From the NCBI RefSeq assembly GCF_021496725.1, contig NZ_CP051215.1, forward strand, positions 62,001 to 126,000: a stretch of DNA of 64,000 nucleotides. Direction: 5' to 3'. Position numbers and translations under genes: made by a program. Under the pieces are notes generated by a model, which was not told the origin of the DNA, ran no database searches, and was given only the letters and a program-made list of their open reading frames with translations. Origin of the DNA: Spiroplasma platyhelix PALS-1. GTDB taxonomy: Bacteria; Bacillota_I; Bacilli_A; Mycoplasmatales; VBWQ01. This document shows positions 9,829 through 32,294 of this stretch, piece after piece (the stretch's first letter is position 1; each line of letters starts with the position of its first letter).

Positions 9829-10711
9829 TGAAAAAAAGAATCGTATTGGTGTTAAGGGTTTAGAAACAATTTTTGGTGATGGGATTAATGATTTGATTAC
9901 TAATATTGAGAATTCTCCTGAAGTGCAACAAAGTTTGGCACAAGAAGTTCCAATTAATAAAATTATTGCCAATCCCCATCAACCAAGAAAACACTTCAAC
10001 ACTCAAGAATTAGAAGAATTAAGTCAGTCAATTAAATTACATGGATTGATTCAACCAATTATTGTTAGCAAAATTAGCAATAGCAATTTCTATCAATTAA
10101 TTGCCGGAGAAAGAAGAAAAAAAGCAGCTGAGATGATTGGTTTAAAAACAATTAAAGCAGTAACAATTGATGCAACAGATCAACAAATGATGGAGTTTGC
10201 CTTAATTGAAAATATTCAAAGAGTAGATTTAAATGCTTTTGAAGAAGCTCAAGCTTATAAAACTTTAATTGACAAGATGAAATGAACTCATGAAGAGTTA
10301 GCAAAAAAAATAAATAAATCTCGTCCTCATATTACTAATACTCTAAGAATTTTAGATCTACCAGCTGAAGTTCTTAAGATGGTGAAGGATAATAAATTAA
10401 CTATGGGTCATGTTAGACCTTTATTGCAACTAACTCCAAACAGCAACTTAATTGTTGCTCTTGCTCATCGTGCTTTTAAAGAAAAATGAAGCGTTCGTAA
10501 AGTTGAAGACATGGTTAGAGTTCAACAATTATTAGGAACAAAAAAAAGTCCAAATATCAAAGATAGTGATATTTATTTGATTGAGTTGGAAAATAGTTTA
10601 AGCAAAAAATTAAGTGCAAAAGTAAAAATCAAAAATCAAAAATTAATTATCAGTTATCTCAACGATAAAGATTTAAATCGTTTGTTAGAATTATTAAAAT
10701 TAATTGATTAG
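9821..10711 (+). CDS. parB: Chromosome partitioning protein ParB (Spo0J)
   Basis: 296-residue ParB-family CTPase/DNA-binding protein. The N-terminal nucleotide-binding region has PHQPRKHF and the GERRKKAAEMIG box; the central helix-turn-helix region (TMGHVRPLLQL) and the C-terminal dimerisation segment follow. TGA at 10283-10285 and 10487-10489 are tryptophans. It overlaps parA by eight bases. Its 3' end overlaps the 3' end of the convergent methyltransferase gene by 12 bases. I found no good parS site in the window. Confidence 0.95.
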
Positions 10712-11983
10712 CATTGTTTCAACAATGCTAATTTTTTTATTTGCTTTAGCTTGATTATATTTTTGATTTCAAATTTCTTGAATAGTGTCACCCATAATTT
10801 TAATTAAATCAACTACCAATGCATTACCCATACAAAAATATCTGAATCTTTCAGGCATATCAGTATTAGTTCAATTATCTGGAAAGCCATTAATTCTTTC
10901 AGTTTCTATTGGTGTTAAGAATCTTAGTTTTTTTGTTTTTGGATCTTCAATTATATGAGAAGAACGATTAATAGTTCCTTCACTTGTTAGCATTGTTCTT
11001 GCTGGAGAATCAATTCTATCTGGAAATGACATTTTTCCTTCTGAATAATAATATATATCACCATTTGGTTTGGTTCTTTGAATTCTTTTTCTATCTTTTA
11101 ATAGGCTTAGTTTTAATTCTTGTGTTTTGGTTAGAAAATATTTTTCTTCAACTTCTGTATTTAAAATAATATTTTCTAAATTTTTAGGTTGGTTACTATA
11201 AGGTGTAGCGTTAGTAGTGAAAATTTTTGAGTCAATCATACAACCACTATTTTCAAAATCAAATTTAAAATTATCAGATACATCTGCTAAATCAATAAAT
11301 TTTTCTTTGATATCGATTTCTTTTATATTATCTAAAGTTATTTCTTTTATTATTTTAAAACTTTTAGCAAAAAAACCATTTTTTTGAATTAAATCTAATG
11401 CATTATCAAAATTAGCATTTTTAATATTAAAAAAATTAATATCTTTTTTATATGCAAATATAAAAATTCTTCTTCTTTTTTGTTGCAAACCATATTCTGC
11501 TGCATTAATTACTCTTCACTCAACATAATATCCGTTATTATATAAATCTCTTAATATTATTCCAAAATCACGACCTTTGTGAGTTTTAGTTGATTTTAAT
11601 AAACGATTAACATTTTCTAATAAAATCATTTTTGGTTTTTTTTCTTTAATAATTCAACTAATTTCTCATCAAAGAACTCCTTTTTCCCCTTGAATTCCGG
11701 CTGCTTGAGTTCGAGCTACTGAATAATCTTGACAAGGGAATCCTCCAACCAATAAATCAATATTATTAGGCATTTCAAATTTAGCAACAGCAATATCTTG
11801 GTTACTATGATTTTTACTATTACCAAAATTATGGTTATAGCAATTAAAAGCATGTTGTTTTTGTTTTTTAGGCTCTCATTGGTTAGCTCATACAGTATGA
11901 AAAATTTTTTTTGAAGAGTTTTCTAATCCTAATCTAAAACCTCCTACACCAGCAAATAGTTCAACTACTTTAATTTTTTTCAT
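10700..11983 (-). CDS. C5-cytosine DNA methyltransferase (type II, probably GATC)
   Basis: 427-residue SAM-dependent DNA (cytosine-5) methyltransferase. Ordered family motifs are present: I (FAGVGGF, residues 10-16), IV with catalytic Cys84 (GGFPCQDYS), VI (ENV, 123-125), VIII (QKRRRIFIF, near 168-176), IX (ERINGFPDN) and X (RYFCMGNAL). The variable region between VIII and IX should set the target. Because the divergent neighbour is a Sau3AI-type endonuclease, the likely target is GATC methylated on cytosine. The ATG at 11983 has AAGGGAG upstream. ATA codons are frequent. The 3' end runs 12 bases into parB, suggesting insertion right behind the parB stop. Function secure; specificity inferred. 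Confidence 0.93.
10707..10738 (+). terminator. Intrinsic terminator of parB
   Basis: Perfect 12-bp stem (ATTAGCATTGTT / AACAATGCTAAT) with a two-base centre and a run of T's. It begins inside the parB stop, and the same bases encode the last residues of the convergent methyltransferase. Confidence 0.9.
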
Positions 11984-12012
11984 AAAGTAAAAAGCTCCCT
12001 TCTTTTATAATC

Positions 12013-12041
12013 TTGTCTACTGTTTTTATTTGTAATATAAT
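12013..12041 (+). promoter_or_regulatory. Promoter of the restriction-helicase operon
   Basis: TTGTCT at 12013-12018 and TATAAT at 12036-12041 with a 17-base spacer, about 83 bases ahead of the endonuclease ATG, in the 141-base gap between divergent methyltransferase and endonuclease genes. Confidence 0.6.
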
Positions 12042-12124
12042 ATTAATAAATTTGATGCAAAAGATCAAGATGTTAAACACAATTAATTATAAATAATTTT
12101 ATAGGAAGATCAAGGATATAGATT

Positions 12125-13513
12125 ATGGAAGTAAAAACAGAAGAACAGGTACTTCAATTAGCTAATAGAATAAAAAACAAATCAATTAATCAAATTATTA
12201 AAGAATTAAGTAATACTAATGATGTTAACTTAGAAGATAAAGGTTATGTAGGTTATGTTATAGAAAGTTATTTTGGTGTTAAACGTAATAATTCTAGCAA
12301 ACCAGACCTTAGTCATTTAGGAATTGAAATTAAGACTACTCCACTTAAAAAATTAAAGAATAAAAACGAATTTTCTGTAAAAGAAAGAATGGTTTTAAAT
12401 ATTATTAATTTTCATCAAGAAAATTTAGAAGATTTTTATCAATCATCATTTTTTATTAAAAATAAAAAAATATTAATGGTATTTTATTTGTTTAATAATG
12501 AAATTTCAGATAAAAATTATTTTATTCATACTATTAATTATCATGATTTATCAAAAATTTCTTTAAAAGATTTGAATATAATTAAAAAAGACTGAGAGAT
12601 TATTGTTAATAAAATTAAAACTGGTAGAGCGCATGAATTATCAGAACGTTTAACTAAATATTTAGGAGCCTGTCCAAAAGGAAATAAGAAAAGTAATAGT
12701 TTAGTTACTCAACCTTTTTCAGATATTAAAGCAATGAGACGCGCTTATAGTTTTAAACCTCATTATTTGAAATATTTATTAATGCAAGATTGCTATAAAG
12801 ATAAATTAATAAAATTTAATATTAATGAAAATGATAATTTAGTTGATTTTATTTTTCAAAAACTCTTTCCTTATATTAATTTGACTGCTAAAGAATTATG
12901 CAAGAAATTCAATATTAATTATAAAAGGAAAGATAAACACTACGCAATTTTAAAAGAGATTTTTGGTATTAATAGTTTTAATAATGTTGAAGAATTATTA
13001 AAAGAGAATATTAAAATCCGTACTTATACAATTAAACCAAATAATGTAATACAAGAAGAATTTCCTTTTCTTATAGTAAATCCTCATGAATTTGAATATA
13101 AGAATGAGAATTCTTTTTATGATTCTGAACTTTATAATTATTTTATTAATACTAAATTTATTTTTGTGGGGTTTAAGAAAGATGATGATAATACTTATAT
13201 TGCAAAAATTTCTTATTTTGAGTTTCCTGAAAAATATCTAAATAAATTAGAAACTATATGAAATGATACACGAAGAAAGTTTCAAGGTGAGATTATATTA
13301 AATTTAAAATATACTAAAAAAGGTAAAATTATTACAACTAATAATTTAATTTCTAAAAAAAATGGTTATATTGGTCATATTAGACCAAGAGCTCAAGATA
13401 AAAATAATGAATATTGAATTCCTTGTGATAAAAAAATAACTAGACAATGTTATTGATTAAATAAAGAGTTTGTTCAAGAAAATTTTAAATATTTAACAAA
13501 AGATTTTAAATAA
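12125..13513 (+). CDS. Sau3AI/MutH-family type II restriction endonuclease
   Basis: 462-residue restriction enzyme, close in length to Sau3AI. The N-terminal half carries a PD-(D/E)xK core, Asp61, Glu68 and Lys70 in KPDLSHLGIEIKTTPL, with the same spacing as the MutH active site (Asp70, Glu77, Lys79). The LEDKGYVGYVIESYFG stretch before it also fits the family. As in Sau3AI, a second half (about residues 200-462) may be a pseudo-copy used for allosteric DNA binding. Established members cut GATC; that target is inferred here. In-frame TGA tryptophans occur near the middle and end. The start has a weak RBS (ATAGGAAG, with distant spacing). Very AT-rich and full of ATA codons. Confidence 0.88.
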
Positions 13514-13534
13514 AGAATAAAAAAGGGGTAAAAA

Positions 13535-14833
13535 ATGGAAACTGAAAATTATATTATCCAAAAAAATTTAGAAAAATTAATTTCTTTTAACAATCCTTCT
13601 CAGACTGGAATGATAATTCCTTCTTTTCCAAATAAAAAATTTGATGTTTATGAAGTTCCATTAGAATGATTAAAATTTAATCCTTATAATGATAGAATAG
13701 CGTCATATATTAGAAGTTATGAATTTAAAAATAAAAATAAAGATATAAATTATTGATTTTCTGATGAAGGACAAAAATTAATAGCAAATTTTTTATGAGA
13801 ATCAGATGTCAATAGTAATGATAAAACTAAAGAAGATTTATTAAGAAATAAACAGCATACTTTTGCTATTATAGATAAGAATGGTTTAATTATAGATGGT
13901 AATCGTCGTGTATGTATTTTAAAAAAAATTTGTTCGGAAATAAATTATAAAAATTTTAATGTTAATTTTTTTAATAAGTTAAAAACTATAATAATTTGGG
14001 AGCCTTTGAATAAAAATCAAGTTATGGAACTTGAAACAGAAATTCAGATGGGTCAAGATGGTAAAATTGATTACCAACCAATTGAAAAATATTTAAAAGT
14101 TAATAAATTATTGAATGAAGGATTTCCTGAAGAAAAAATTGCCAGTTTAATAAAAAAAGAAGTAAAAGATATTAGAGAATATAAACAAGTTTATAATTTA
14201 ATGAATAGTTATTTAGATTATATTAATGCTCCAAATCAATTTGAATTTATTAAAAGAATGGAAGATCATTTTATTAATTTAAATAAAACTTTAAATTATA
14301 TGAGAAACGAAAATTATAGTGCGGATTGAAAATATGATGATACAGATATTTTTGATTTTCAAATTATAGCGTTTTGTTTTGTTCGATCAGGATATGAAGG
14401 GAAAAAATTTAGAAAATTATTAGGTTCAGCAACTCAAAGAAATGGTCCTTTTGCTAATAAAAAAATGTGAGATAAATTTAAAGAAGAAATTTTGGAAGAG
14501 AATAATAAAGCTGAAAAACGAATGATGCATAGAATTGATTTAATGAAAAAAGAAGATCAAGAAGCTGTTTATAAAAATGATAGTAATAAAATTTATTTAA
14601 AAGATAAATATAATGAAGTTTTAAGAGATATATCTCGTATATTAGAAATTAAGAATGATGGTTTCAAAGGTCAAAAATTAATGAAATCCTGTTTGCAGTC
14701 TATAAATGAAATAAATAATATTTTTGAAGAAATATATATAACGTCTGAACTCAAAAAAGATTTTAAAAAAATAAAAGAAATAATTTTAAATATTGATAAA
14801 AAATTAATTGAAAAAGGTAAAAAAGATGATTAA
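13535..14833 (+). CDS. ParB/Srx-domain protein of the defence island
   Basis: 432-residue protein with an N-terminal ParB/sulfiredoxin-like fold: VPLEWLKFNPYNDR near residue 45 and IIDGNRRVCILKKI near 118-131, where DGNRR matches the GERR-type nucleotide-binding box. A region near residue 190 (LLNEGFPEEKIASLIKKEV) resembles the helix-turn-helix of ParB proteins. The C-terminal third is charged and helical, unlike chromosomal ParB. It is unrelated in length and neighbourhood to the chromosomal parB at 9821. It starts 21 bases after the endonuclease stop with GGGG as RBS, and overlaps the helicase gene by eight bases, so it probably works with them. Whether it binds, hydrolyses CTP or cuts DNA is unknown. 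Confidence 0.7.
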
Positions 14834-16862
14834 ACTAGAGATTTCTAATGATAATATGATTATAATTTTAAATGCTAGTTACTTATCAGATGATAATAAG
14901 AGAAATTTAGATCTTTTTTTAGGTTCTAGTTCAAGAATTGCACAAAATTTTTTAACTATAAAAAATGATACGCAAGTTAATACTCAAAATTTATCATATT
15001 CTTTAATTCAAATAAAAAAATATTTAGATAAAAGTAGAATTAAATATATTTTAGGAGAAACTATTAAAAAATTTGAATCTAAACAAACTTTAGTTAAAGA
15101 TAATTTTTTTAAATTGAAAAAAATTGGTGAAAATTTAAAATTGAATATAGAGATAATTCCTGAAGAATTTATTTGAGAATATAAAGATTTTGAAAAATTT
15201 ACTAAAAAAAGTTTCCAAAAAGAACATATCCCATATCCAAATCAATTGCGTAGCGCATTTTTTCATTTAAAAATGAAAAAATCTTGTAATTTTTCTGATC
15301 CAGGAACTGGGAAAACAACTATAGTTTATAGTTTATTTAACTGATTAAAAAATAAAGAAGAAGATGAAATTGATGCTATTTTTATTATAGGTCCACTGTC
15401 TTCATTTCATTCTTGAGAAAAAGAATATGAAGAATGTTTTTGAAGAGTTCCAAATTGTATTGATTTTAAAGCAAAAAGTTTTGCGAGTCGTCTTAAAATT
15501 AGTAATATAGAAGATTTAGACAGAGTATATTTTTTAAATTATGATAGAGTTGATTCTTATAAGGAAGAATTAATTGAATTCTTTCAAAAGTATAGAATAT
15601 TATTAGTTTTGGATGAAGCACATAGACTTAAAAATCCAGTATCAAGAAGATTTAAAGCATTGAATTGTATTTTAAATGCTTCAGGTATTAAAATTCCTTA
15701 TCAGATTATACTAACAGGTACACCAATTCCTAACGGATACGAAAATTTTCATTCTTACTTTGATTTAATAAGAAAAGAAGAACCTAAAATTCTTTCTAAA
15801 CAATTTCACGAACTTAGAAAAATTGAGAATACTGATTTATTAAAAATTGCTGAACTTACAAAAGAAATTTTTCCGTTTTTTTATAAGTTAAAAAAAGAAA
15901 AAATGAAGAATTTTAAAATTCCTATTGAAAAGTTACAAGATTGTAGTATGGATGAATTCCAAAATGAATTATTTGACAGACTTCGAAAGAATTTAATTGA
16001 TTCTTGAGATAAAGAAAATGATATTCAAATTCATTTAAATTTTTATAGAAGTAAATTAATTAGATTAATGCAAATACAAACAGATCTTAGAATGATATCA
16101 CAGCCAGTAGATAATATTATTTATTCAAATACTAATTTAAATGATAATGATGAAGATTTAGATGATAATGATTTTGAAGAAATAAAAAATCTTTTAAAAA
16201 ATAAATCGTTTGAAAAGGAAATAGAAGAATTAGCACTTAATTCTTCTGATATCAAAGTTAAATTAAATACTTATGTTAACCAAAAGAAAATACCTGAAAA
16301 ATATATTCAATTAATAGAAATAGTTAAAAAATTATTGAATAACAATCAAAAAATTATAATTTGAACAAATTGAATTTTTACTATTAATGAAATTCATAGA
16401 CTCTTAAAAAATGAAGGTATAAATTCTGGTTTATTATATGGAAAAATTAAATATGAAGAAAAATTGAAAACTATTGATAAATTTAATAACCTTGAAAGCA
16501 ATGAACTAATGGTTTTAATAGCAAATCCAGCTTCAGTTGCAGAATCAATTTCACTTCATAAAGCTTGTCAGAACGCGATATATTTTGATATTAATTATAA
16601 TGTTACAAATTATTTTCAATCAAAAGATAGAATTCATAGATACGGGATGCTTCCAGACAAAGAGCAAGTAACATATTATTATTTTTTATCGGGCAATGGA
16701 TTAGAAAAATATATTTTTAATTCTAATAAATCAAAAGAACAACAAATGAAAGAATTTTTTATTTCAAATGACAAAACATACAACAGTTTTATTCCTGAAT
16801 CTACTGATGTTGAAGGAATGAAAAAAGTAATTAACATACTAAGAAAAACAAATATAGACTAG
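14826..16862 (+). CDS. SNF2-like superfamily 2 helicase/translocase
   Basis: 678-residue ATPase. After an N-terminal domain of about 130 residues that I do not recognise come the SF2 motifs: a Q-like segment (YPNQLRSAF), motif I DPGTGKTT near residue 158, Ia (GPLSSFHSWEKEY), motif II DEAH near 263 (LDEAHRLKNP, as in SNF2 proteins), motif III TGTPIPN near 298, and a C-terminal lobe with VAESISLHKACQNAIYFD and QSKDRIHRYG (motifs V and VI). Such enzymes usually translocate along duplex DNA. It begins within the ParB-like gene, ATG overlapping by eight bases. Codon use is ATA-rich, like the rest of the island. A link to restriction is inferred only from context. Confidence 0.85.
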
Positions 16863-28648: not shown

Positions 28649-29518
28649 ATGGAAAATTTTATTAATGCTAAGTCTTTAGTTGATAAAGCTAGAGCAGGAA
28701 AATATGCTGTTGCTCATTTTAATATCAATAATTTAGAATGAACAAGAAGCATTTTAGAAGTAGCGCAAGAAACACAATCAGGAATTATTATTGGTGTTTC
28801 AGAAGGAGCAGCTAAATATATGGGTGGCTATCATGTTGTTGGCAATTTAGTTAAGTCTTTAATGCAAGATTTGAAAATTACTGCTCCAATTGCCTTACAT
28901 TTAGATCATGGGCAATCATTTGAAGCATGTCAACAAGCTTTAGAAGCAGGTTTCACTTCAGTGATGTTTGATGGTTCACATTTAAGTTTTACAGAAAACT
29001 TAGCAATAACTAAAAGAGTTGTTGAACTAGCTAAAAAATATAATGCTTCAGTTGAAGCAGAAGCTGGCTCAATTGGTGGAGAAGAAGATGGCGTTGTTGG
29101 ACTTGGTGAGGTAGCTGATCCAAATGAATGTAAGCAATTAGCTGATTTAGGGATTGATATCTTAGCAGCAGGAATTAATAATGTTCATGGACCTTACCCA
29201 GAAGGTTGACAAGGTCTAAACTTTGATTCTTTACAAAAAATTGCGCAAGTAAGCAATAAACCATTAGTTTTACATGGTGGTTCAGGAATTCCAAAAGAAC
29301 AAGTTAGCAAAGCAATTAGTTTAGGAATTTGTAAAGTAAATGTGAACACTGAGTTGCAAGAAGTTTTTGCGGCAGCAATTAGAGAATACATTGTTGCAGA
29401 TAAGGATAAGACTAAAAAAGGTTACGATCCAAGAAAAATTATGCGTGCACCAATGGATGCAATTAAGAATACAGCAAAAGAGTTACTGACAGAATTTGGT
29501 TCTTTAGGTAAGTCATAG
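28649..29518 (+). CDS. fba: Class II fructose-1,6-bisphosphate aldolase
   Basis: 289-residue zinc-dependent aldolase of glycolysis. Family motifs: AVAHFNINNLEW near the start, the metal/substrate region LHLDHGQSFE (near residue 85), EAEAGSIGGEEDG, and ALHGGSG-like LVLHGGSGIP near 210. A GAAGGTG site precedes the ATG. TGA at 28739-28741 and 29207-29209 are tryptophans. It should work with the fructose route (fruA-fruK) at 41926-44506, splitting the bisphosphate that FruK makes. Confidence 0.95.
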
Positions 29519-29584
29519 TTTTAAAAATAATTTATAAGTGATTATTTTTTAGATTATCAATGATACATTCATGATAAAATTAAT

Positions 29585-29676
29585 ATGTAAGACCTAAATG
29601 TTAGTTGATGACAGATAAGCTTAGTTTGCTTTGGAATCTAACCGCGGTGTAAACGCGGAACCATTTAGGCATTTTT
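29585..29676 (+). ncRNA. Candidate structured RNA A (three-way junction)
   Basis: An RNA-like element starting TGTAAGAC. A closing stem CCTAAATG (29593-29600) pairs with CATTTAGG (29662-29669) and is followed by T's. Inside are a hairpin AGATAAGC/GCTT...ATCT (29613-29639) and a GC-rich hairpin CCGCG-GTGTAAA-CGCGG (29642-29658), striking in DNA this AT-rich. A related element with compensatory changes lies at 30564-30650 on the other strand. A TAAAAT at about 29573 could be a -10 box. It does not match tRNA, SRP RNA or a riboswitch that I can name. Not part of fba, which ends 67 bases earlier. Confidence 0.5.
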
Positions 29677-29720
29677 TATGATTAAATCCCATTTTGAACA
29701 GCTACAATAAAGTAGATTCG

Positions 29721-30542
29721 TTAAATGGGATTTATTGCTTCACATTTTAAACACAATTTTGATATTGTTTGACATTGTTCTTTTATAGTATAGTGACAAA
29801 AACAAGAAATTTTTTTATGAATAGTATCAAAAAACATATCTATGTCTTTATCTCAATCTTTTTGAGAACCTATAATGATTCTACACATAGAGGAAGTTAA
29901 ACCAGCATAGTAATCAGAATATCTTATTAAAGGTGATATTGATGAATCTAATTGTGTTACAATTATTTTCACATTATTAAATTTAGAATTTATATATAGT
30001 GATGTATTTATATAGCCTTCAAGCGATTCAAGATTATTTTTACGATTTATTTTCGGTGTAGATTTTCTTTGATCAATAAATATTTTTATCGCAATTTCTT
30101 CATTAAAATTGATATTTGATTTATTTAAAGTTCTGTCTACTAGATAATAAACCATCATATTATATATTGCGTCCAAATTTAAAGCTCTATTATTTTTTGC
30201 TTTTCATTTTTTTAAATTACAATGGATGCTTATATTTTGTTGATTAAAATTTTTTATATTTTCAATTAAAAATTTTTTATTATCATATGATAGTGTATGT
30301 CATTTTAGTTCTCTGTCTTTTTTTGTATTTTCTGACAAGATATATTGCGCTAAATTTTGCTCATTATTTTTTCGATATGCTTTGATAGAATTTTCTGTTT
30401 TTAAAATATTAGCTTTAATTTTAGTTTCTATTTTTTGAATTTGAGTGTGGTCATTAGAAATATTATAAAACCCAGCGATAGTAAAAAACGCTGATGTAGT
30501 ATTTCCACTTTCATCTAAATAAAAATTAATAAATCATTTCAA
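29721..30542 (-). CDS. DUF3800 family protein
   Basis: 273-residue protein of the DUF3800 family, identified by the N-terminal NFYLDESGNTT (acidic pair Asp/Glu) and by the C-terminal LDSSISPLIRYSDYYAGL, the two conserved ends of that family. Its activity is not established; family members are often found near mobile or defence genes. No in-frame ATG exists ahead of the conserved start; TTG at 30542 with GGGGG nine bases upstream is the best start. ATA codons are common. It is embedded between two related structured RNAs and is the only gene between fba and the ABC exporter on the minus strand. TGA tryptophans (for example in ELKWH) are in frame. Confidence 0.75.
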
Positions 30543-30563
30543 AAGATATAAACCCCCATTTAT

Positions 30564-30650
30564 AAAAAAAGAGGGTTGCCCCTCCAGCATAGAACTGTCC
30601 GTGCTTACATCACGGTTAAGCTTTGCTACATAATTCTATGTCTTACAAAT
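30564..30650 (-). ncRNA. Candidate structured RNA B with intrinsic terminator, upstream of the DUF3800 gene
   Basis: Read on the minus strand it begins TTTGTAAGAC, like RNA A. A closing stem CATAGAA (30640-30634) pairs with TTCTATG (30593-30587). Inside, AGC-AAA-GCT and the hairpin CCGTG-ATGTAAG-CACGG (30615-30599) follow. It ends in a strong terminator: GAGGG-GCAA-CCCTC (30584-30571) and seven T's. The DUF3800 start lies 22 bases beyond, so this is either a stand-alone small RNA or a transcription-attenuating leader. A TATAAA lies just upstream of the GTAAGAC start. Confidence 0.55.
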
Positions 30651-30754
30651 TTATAGTAACATTTTATTTAAAAAAATAACAGCAATTAAATTATTTTTAT
30701 TTTTTTTGTTACAATTAAACAAAAATAAACTTTAAAAAAGTTCCGAGGTTTTTT

Positions 30755-31474
30755 GTGAAAAAAAAGATAATTGAGATTACTAATTTAGAAAAGACTTTTG
30801 CTAGCAAAGTTATTCTTAAAGATGTCAACTGAAGTGTTGAAGAAGGAGAACGAGTAGCAATTTTAGGAGCTAATGGTGCTGGTAAGACAACATTTGTCGA
30901 AATGATTAGCCAAGTTTCTAAACCAACAAAAGGAAAAATTAAAATCAATTTAGATGGAAATATTAAATCACAAATTGGAATTCAATTTCAACAAGGTGAT
31001 TGAATTCCAGGGTTAAATGCGCAAGATCTTTTAGAATTTTATCATCACCTTTTTCCTGAGTTCAGTGAAAAAAGAGAAAAAGAATTAGCAGAGATTTTTG
31101 AGATTAATGAATTTAGAAAAACTAGTTTAACTAAATTATCTGGTGGTCAGAAGCAGCGCTTTAATGCAATGCTTTCAGTTTTAAACAAACCGAAGATTGT
31201 GATTCTAGATGAACTAACAGTTGGTTTAGATATGGAGTTACAATTTAAAATTTTAAACTTCTTTAAAAAAAGTACTAAAGAAGAAAAGCAAACTTTATTA
31301 ATTGTTTCTCATAATGCCCAAGAAGTTGAAATGTTGTGCACAAGAATGATTATCATTGGAAATCAAGGAATTTTCTTTGATGACTCAATTAAAAATGTTC
31401 AAAAAAATTATGGTGGGGTAAGAAATTTAATGGATAATTATTTTAGAAAGGAACTAAAAAATGGCAAAAAATAG
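30755..31474 (+). CDS. ABC transporter ATP-binding protein (ABC-2 exporter)
   Basis: 239-residue single-domain ATPase. Walker A is GANGAGKTT (about residues 40-48), the Q-loop follows in IGIQFQQGD, the signature is LSGGQKQRF near 132, and Walker B is IVILDELTVGLD, with Leu where most have Pro after Glu. It starts at GTG (RBS CGAGG is weak). It overlaps the permease gene by 14 bases, so the two form a half-transporter pair. The substrate cannot be told; related pairs export drugs, peptides or lipids. Confidence 0.88.
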
Positions 31475-32294
31475 ATTTTCTAGTTTCAAACGTAAAAGTG
31501 AAAATTATTGAGGACTCTTTAAATTAATTGGTAAATCTTTTTATCGTAATCCTCGTGGACCACTTTTTCTTTATATTGTTCCTGTTTTTTTCTTAGTACT
31601 ATTTTATTTTGTTCTGGGTAATGGGATGGACAATGCAGGTAAAGTTAGCTTGTTGTCTAGTTACTTGTTATTACCAGGGCTAACGATTTTAACTTCTTTA
31701 GCTCCAGCAATTGTTGAATGAAAAAATTCAGTTTTTTTAAAGCGAATTGACAGCACAGGAGTAAACAAATCTTTATTTTTATTAGCATTGTGAAGTTTTT
31801 ACTTTTTAGTTGGATTAAGTGGCATCTTTTTTCAATTTCTTATCGCCTTAGCTTTAGGGAATAAAATTTTTATCGAACATTTGCCAACGATTCAATGAGG
31901 ATACTTTATTTTAGGAGTTTTCTACACAATTATTTTAGCAATAGCAATTGCTACTCTATTAGGCGGACTTTTTAGTAATGAAGGAGTAATGCAAGGACTG
32001 ACAATGATGATTTATTTTTTATCAATTTTCTTATCAGGGATAATGTTGTATCCAACTTTATATGAAACAAGTGAATTTATTAGAATCTTTACTTATTTAA
32101 TTCCTCAAAAATATGCATCTTTCTTAATTTTAATGGCTCAAGATGTTAAAGGACTAGCAGGAGAATTTAACAATGCTAATCCAAATCATCAAGATTTTAC
32201 AGCTGTTTGACAATTAATAGTTGGTGGATTATTGTTTATTATTTTCTTTTTTGTAATCACTAACTTTACTTTTAAATGAACTGCTAAGCGATAA
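31461..32294 (+). CDS. ABC-2 type transporter permease
   Basis: 277-residue membrane protein with about six hydrophobic segments, after a basic amphipathic N-terminus (MAKNRFSSFKRKSENYW). The region LSIFLSGIMLYPTLYET and the preceding large loop fit ABC-2 permeases. RBS AGAAAGGAAC lies inside the ATPase gene. TGA at 32208-32210 is Trp. Partner of the ATPase at 30755. Confidence 0.85.

What the first reader, a model, noticed from the sequence alone, without database searches (positions are those of the whole stretch)
29585..30650. Two related structured RNAs in inverted orientation around a DUF3800 gene
RNA A (+, 29585-29676) and RNA B (-, 30650-30564) share a start TGTAAGAC, an AAGCTTA segment, and a GC-rich hairpin followed by A-rich bases and a closing stem. 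The hairpin is CCGCG-GTGTAAA-CGCGG in A and CCGTG-ATGTAAG-CACGG in B: the central C-G pair became T-A, so pairing is kept by compensatory change, and the loop keeps TGTAA. The closing stem changed on both arms too (CCTAAATG/CATTTAGG versus CATAGAA/TTCTATG). That is covariation, the best sequence sign of a functional RNA. B ends in a strong terminator with a GCAA loop. I cannot match the pair to a known riboswitch, tRNA, SRP RNA or tmRNA. They could be small RNAs, a regulatory leader, or the structured ends of a mobile cassette whose cargo is the DUF3800 gene.
Basis: seen in the sequence. Interest (0 to 1): 0.78.

Follow-up and report, generated by a model that had tools for sequence, protein, structure and literature searches.

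The report
Two small RNAs beside nuclease-like gene
Two related small structured RNAs flank a gene for a protein shaped like the nuclease RNase HII; both belong to, or are close kin of, a catalogued but unexplained RNA family that travels with such genes, and comparisons suggest that the RNA is a separate partner of the protein that can outlast it, much as an antitoxin can outlast its toxin.

Summary
RNA A (29586-29676, +) and RNA B (30648-30563, -) fold into the same three-way junction, with compensatory changes in all four helices. They are not unclassifiable: B matches Rfam RF02969 (DUF3800-I RNA) end to end at 42.1 bits, E 1.2e-4, just under the curated cut-off of 44.2, so a default scan misses it. 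A covariance model built without any window sequence finds exactly two sites in the 64 kb: B (E 7e-6) and A (E 0.018). A is a divergent relative with an enlarged side arm. No other copy was found in the genome, and its only DUF3800 gene lies between them; the protein is modelled as RNase HII-like with invariant acidic residues.

Of 59 such RNAs in the order, 17 lie upstream, 10 downstream and 3 opposite to a DUF3800 gene; 29 have none within 5 kb. At least eight persist beside a broken gene. The RNA is best read as a trans-acting partner, most likely restraining the nuclease antitoxin-style (inferred, about 0.4). 'Ends of a mobile cassette' is not supported, though the gene with RNA B has probably moved between families. 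Verdict: new member of a known kind; function open.

The parts
29586..29676 (+). RNA A: divergent DUF3800-I-type RNA. P1 29593-29600/29662-29669, P2 29604-29606/29659-29661, enlarged P3 29607-29638 (GAU-GA...GA-AUC), UAA linker 29639-29641, P4 29642-29646/29654-29658 with UGUAA in the loop; P1 plus U-tract may serve as terminator
   Evidence: Model R2 (no window sequences) 21.2 bits, E 0.018 over 64 kb; R1 31.3 bits; same fold by free energy
29575..29585 (+). presumed -10 region of RNA A (TAAAAT/TTAATA), weak
   Evidence: Read from the sequence only; the consensus scan reports no full sigma-70 site here
30563..30648 (-). RNA B: DUF3800-I RNA. P1 30640-30633/30595-30588, P3 30627-30625/30621-30619, UAA linker 30618-30616, P4 30615-30611/30603-30599 with UGUAA in the loop
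   Evidence: Rfam RF02969 42.1 bits, E 1.2e-4, model 1-115; R2 35.1 bits, E 7e-6
30563..30585 (-). intrinsic terminator of RNA B (GCAA loop, U-tract), about 20 nt before the gene start
   Evidence: Terminator scan, 0.1 expected in shuffles
29721..30542 (-). DUF3800 gene, probable TTG start at 30542, TGA read as Trp; RNase HII-like model
   Evidence: PF12686 46.5 bits; structure and fold search
29586..32294 (.). block (A, DUF3800, B, ABC ATPase, ABC permease) that is absent between fba and rpiB in both same-genus genomes
   Evidence: Synteny comparison; orthologous ABC permease not found elsewhere in the genus, only 26-30% matches

Best explanation
Shown or strongly supported (about 0.93): A and B are two small structured RNAs of the DUF3800-I kind beside the genome's only DUF3800 gene. 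B is the orthologue that travels with this gene; A is a divergent sister whose nearest kin sits beside a different DUF3800 lineage in the same genus. Inferred (about 0.4): each RNA is a separate transcript of 85-95 nt that binds the DUF3800 protein, an RNase HII-like nuclease, in trans, with the conserved UAA linker and UGUAA loop as the likely grip, and holds it in check as an RNA antitoxin does. In the B arrangement the gene would be expressed by read-through of the RNA's terminator, which would keep RNA in excess over protein. A would be a second or left-over controlling RNA. What the free nuclease would cut, and what would release it, is unknown.
For: Family; covariation in all 19 pairs, score 0.707 against 0.188 in shuffles. 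Only two copies in the genome, both at the only DUF3800 gene; a random site this close has a probability of about 0.002. RNA position relative to the gene is free: upstream, downstream, opposite or absent, so it acts in trans. RNA kept beside broken or remnant genes in G121, G094, G064, G027, G176, G257:C2, G019, G035. Three intact genes in RNA-I clades without a local RNA (L122, L123, L130) lie in genomes with RNA elsewhere. RNase HII-like fold and invariant acidic residues. RNA presence is clustered on the DUF3800 tree, 5 changes against 14 in shuffles.
Against: No expression, binding or toxicity data. A short RNA is a smaller mutational target than a gene, so its survival beside a broken gene is only suggestive. 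Orphan counts are inflated by fragmented assemblies and by the 5-kb cut. The 3-of-3 trans pairing was noticed afterwards and rests on few genomes. PADLOC has no match for the protein. A shared fold does not show nuclease activity.
Confidence: 0.42

Rival explanations
1. The RNA is an activating cofactor: DUF3800 plus RNA is a ribonucleoprotein nuclease of a defence kind, in which the RNA positions or helps to recognise the target.
For: RNase H fold; DUF3800 proteins occur in some CRISPR type V and VI loci (PMC10910872, PMC12669027); the G101 locus lies beside a Cas9 gene.
Against: All arms covary, so no free guide segment is evident; many RNAs have no nearby gene and several persist beside broken genes, which an activator would not explain well.
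Confidence: 0.27
2. RNA B is a leader or attenuator that regulates the DUF3800 gene in cis; A is the terminator structure of fba or of the convergent gene.
For: B ends in a terminator about 20 nt before the gene; 17 RNAs are upstream on the same strand.
Against: 10 RNAs lie downstream, 3 opposite, and 29 have no gene within 5 kb; five in tandem in G135 without a gene.
Confidence: 0.12
3. RNA A is a left-over from another DUF3800 system of the G031 type whose gene was lost here, and has no role with the present gene.
For: A's GAUGACAG...UGGAAUCUAA signature occurs in 2 of 320 genomes, the other time directly after a DUF3800 gene 27% identical to this one.
Against: A is 45 nt from the only DUF3800 gene and its fold is intact; such closeness is unlikely by chance. 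No remnant of a second gene was seen in the 67 nt before A. This rival concerns A only and fits with the main reading of B.
Confidence: 0.3
4. A and B are the structured ends of a mobile cassette whose cargo is the DUF3800 gene.
For: Inverted arrangement with TGTAAGAC at both outer ends; the block is absent in two relatives; the gene with RNA B has probably been transferred.
Against: The G025 and G056 pairs have an RNA at one end only; TGTAAGAC is the conserved 5' start of the RNA; the absent block also holds the ABC genes, so its edges are not at A and B; no transposase seen.
Confidence: 0.05

Closest known systems
DUF3800-I RNA (Rfam RF02969, type Gene; sRNA)
   Same: Three-way junction P1-P4, UAA linker, UGUAA loop, 3' terminator (B), beside a DUF3800 gene
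   Different: B is 2.1 bits under the cut-off; neither A nor B has the 5' hairpin of the Rfam consensus; A has an enlarged P3, no separate terminator hairpin, and lies opposite to the gene
Type III toxin-antitoxin (ToxIN)
   Same: RNA, then terminator, then nuclease-like gene; RNA separable from the gene (a resemblance in layout)
   Different: Antitoxin there is a set of tandem pseudoknot repeats and the toxin has a fold like type II RNase toxins (PMC8860590); here a single three-way junction and an RNase HII-like fold
RNase HII / RNase H2
   Same: Predicted fold, VIA Z 10.2-10.3 over 163-169 residues; acidic invariant residues and a DE-x-G motif on the first strand
   Different: About 14% identity, separate Pfam family, RNA partner, patchy distribution

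Membership tests
Rfam DUF3800-I (RF02969) | Score at or above the curated gathering score (44.2 bits) | tested here: not met
   B 42.1 bits, E 1.2e-4 over the whole model; A not reported. Hence filed as DUF3800-I-type, sub-threshold
Rfam DUF3800-I (RF02969) | Conserved three-way junction with covarying P1, P2, P3, P4 | tested here: met
   Independent model R2 finds A and B only; covariation
Rfam DUF3800-I (RF02969) | 5' hairpin of the consensus before P1 | tested here: not met
   No convincing hairpin in A or B; Rfam's alignment of B there holds mismatches. Other hits such as L052 also lack it by eye
Rfam DUF3800-I (RF02969) | Nearby DUF3800 gene | tested here: met
   PF12686, 46.5 bits, between A and B
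Type III toxin-antitoxin | Antitoxin made of tandem RNA repeats that fold as pseudoknots | tested here: not met
   A and B are single three-way junctions
Type III toxin-antitoxin | Toxin of the ToxN (Kid/MazF-like) fold | tested here: inconclusive
   Fold search ranks RNase HII first and lists no ToxN; absence from the list does not exclude it
Type III toxin-antitoxin | RNA binds and inhibits a toxic nuclease | not testable with these tools
   Needs assay
RNase HII-like fold | RNase HII fold with acidic active site | tested here: inconclusive
   Fold match Z 10.2 and invariant D10, E78, D157, D210; residues not superposed
RNase HII-like fold | Cleavage at ribonucleotides in hybrid duplexes | not testable with these tools
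   Needs assay

The most novel reading that the evidence does not exclude
DUF3800-I RNA with DUF3800 is a new class of RNA-controlled nuclease: an RNase HII-fold toxin or defence enzyme held by a three-way-junction RNA that acts in trans, with orphan and tandem RNAs serving as protection against foreign copies.
Probability: 0.3. Interest if true: 0.8.

Novelty: new member of a known kind. Interest (0 to 1): 0.45.

Why it matters
DUF3800-associated RNAs are catalogued, but the papers found here report no function for them. This locus and its relatives give testable clues: the RNA is found upstream of, downstream of, opposite to or far from the gene, persists beside broken genes and occurs in tandem, and the protein is modelled as RNase HII-like. 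If the RNA restrains the protein, this would be an RNA-protein toxin-antitoxin or defence system unlike type III, in genomes small enough for clean tests.

Tried and rejected
Rfam at the default threshold found nothing in the window; the hit appears only in a short-stretch E-value search, where the snoRNA and PyrG-leader hits (E 1.5-4.5) are chance. No tRNA or tmRNA. MAFFT alignments of whole RNAs misplace P1 and were not used; models were seeded from gap-free cores, some padded with N. Mobile-cassette ends: rejected for lack of an exact empty site, a transposase or a constant second RNA. Guide RNA: P3 varies but covaries, so it is a hairpin, not a free guide. Conserved operon partner: none; the commonest Pfam families occur in only 2 of 74 neighbours and are ordinary. 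PADLOC has no match for the DUF3800 protein. The original report of DUF3800 RNAs (Weinberg et al. 2017, named from memory) is not in the library. The fold search also lists Argonaute PIWI and Cas9 (Z 5.9-6.8), too weak to use. ToxN does not appear among the fold matches, which does not exclude it.

Full report
WHAT IS THERE. The window is from a small genome (744 kb, one contig) whose genes are open when TGA is read as tryptophan. Between fba (28649-29518) and a two-gene ABC transporter (30755-32294) lie RNA A (+), a DUF3800 gene (-) and RNA B (-). From the TGTAAGAC start to the 3' end, free-energy folding alone gives the same three-way junction for A, B and the G025 orthologue of B: a closing stem P1, a short P2, a side arm P3, a UAA linker and a hairpin P4 with UGUAA in its loop. 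With helices set by hand, A versus B has 10 two-sided compensatory changes in 19 pairs and no broken pair; A versus its G031 relative has 4, with one P1 position facing a gap.

WHAT FAMILY. A default Rfam scan of the window is empty. A search of the 1.5-kb stretch gives RF02969 DUF3800-I for B: 42.1 bits, E 1.2e-4, whole model 1-115, against a gathering score of 44.2. I then built covariance models from cores of RF02969 hits in other genomes. Model R2 has no window sequence; over the full 64 kb it gives two matches at E up to 1, B (35.1 bits, E 7e-6) and A (21.2 bits, E 0.018). R1, which includes B, gives A 31.3 bits. Over 39 distinct sequences all 19 pairs show two-sided changes, with a covariation score of 0.707 against 0.188 for shuffles and at most 0.144 for slid partners; the alignment is fitted to the structure, so the contrast is somewhat flattering. 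A is thus a divergent relative with a 32-nt P3, and with P1 plus a U-tract in place of a separate terminator.

THE GENE. PF12686 at 46.5 bits. In 38 homologues D10, G13, E78, K80, D157, S200 and D210 are invariant. The AlphaFold2 model (pLDDT 82.6, pTM 0.84) matches RNase HII and RNase H2 first: Foldseek E 3e-4, VIA Z 10.2-10.3 over 163-169 residues. Two papers report an RNase H fold for DUF3800 and its presence in some CRISPR loci (PMC10910872, PMC12669027). A shared fold does not show activity.

RELATIVES. In two same-genus genomes fba is followed, after a spacer of about 290-410 nt, by rpiB; the block from A to the ABC genes is absent there. G025 has the orthologous gene (about 70% identical) elsewhere, preceded by a close RNA B with its own compensatory changes. 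G056, in another family, has a 64%-identical protein with a close RNA B, while the core enzyme pyrG is 58% identical there and 81% within the genus; the pair has probably been transferred. A's signature is found in 2 of 320 genomes, the second time directly after a different DUF3800 gene in G031. The window's genome has one DUF3800 gene and two RNAs of this kind, all at this place.

HOW IT MIGHT WORK. Among 59 RNAs, 17 are upstream on the same strand, 10 downstream on the same strand, 3 on the opposite strand, and 29 have no DUF3800 match within 5 kb on the contig (that class includes loci with gene remnants, and fragmented assemblies inflate it). In at least eight loci (G121, G094, G064, G027, G176, G257:C2, G019, G035) the gene is broken or a remnant while the RNA still scores. 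G135 has five RNAs in tandem. RNA-I presence is clustered on the DUF3800 tree: 5 changes against 14 in shuffles. Three intact genes in RNA-I clades without a local RNA (L122, L123, L130) belong to G115, G135 and G192, each of which holds the RNA elsewhere; this was noticed afterwards and counts as a lead. Together these say that the RNA acts in trans with the protein. That it restrains the protein rather than activates it is inference, from the order of loss (gene first, RNA kept), the RNA-terminator-gene layout with only about 20 nt between terminator and gene, and the multiple or orphan RNAs. An activating RNA cofactor is the main rival. A leader role could be added for B but is not the general role.

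MEMBERSHIP AND NOVELTY. B is a DUF3800-I RNA by homology, structure and context, though 2.1 bits under the curated cut-off; A is a divergent relative of the same kind. The pair may work like a type III toxin-antitoxin but is not a member: the tandem-pseudoknot feature is not met, and the protein model points to another fold. The finding is a new member of a known kind. The inverted pair of RNAs around the gene is unusual but is also seen in G101.

Noticed in passing
L103 and L107, downstream of the DUF3800 gene (- strand, 3' of about position 2872): Two orthologous DUF3800 genes of the same genus are followed by another conserved candidate RNA (GUUGGUCAGAGUCUAG...GCUGCCCAAC plus terminator) with no Rfam match.
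   Followed up: partly
L104 and L108, downstream of the DUF3800 gene; L105, upstream of it: Further candidate structured RNAs beside other DUF3800 genes of the genus, each of a different type and without an Rfam match; every DUF3800 gene of these genomes may have its own RNA.
   Followed up: partly
L049:4001-4921 (- strand): Five DUF3800-I-type RNAs in tandem, each with its own terminator, and no DUF3800 gene within 4 kb.
   Followed up: partly
L056:4001-10101: G101 has the same inverted arrangement (RNA opposite and downstream, second RNA 2.5 kb upstream on the gene's strand) next to a Cas9 gene.
   Followed up: partly
L061, L062, L063; L066, L129: In G257 and G189 the DUF3800-RNA pair lies inside repeated segments of about 4-8 kb at 97-99.9% identity, so it seems to be cargo of a larger mobile element there.
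   Followed up: partly
window 10700-16862: A restriction-modification-like island: C5 DNA methyltransferase, type II restriction enzyme, an unidentified 432-aa protein and an SNF2-like helicase.
   Followed up: partly
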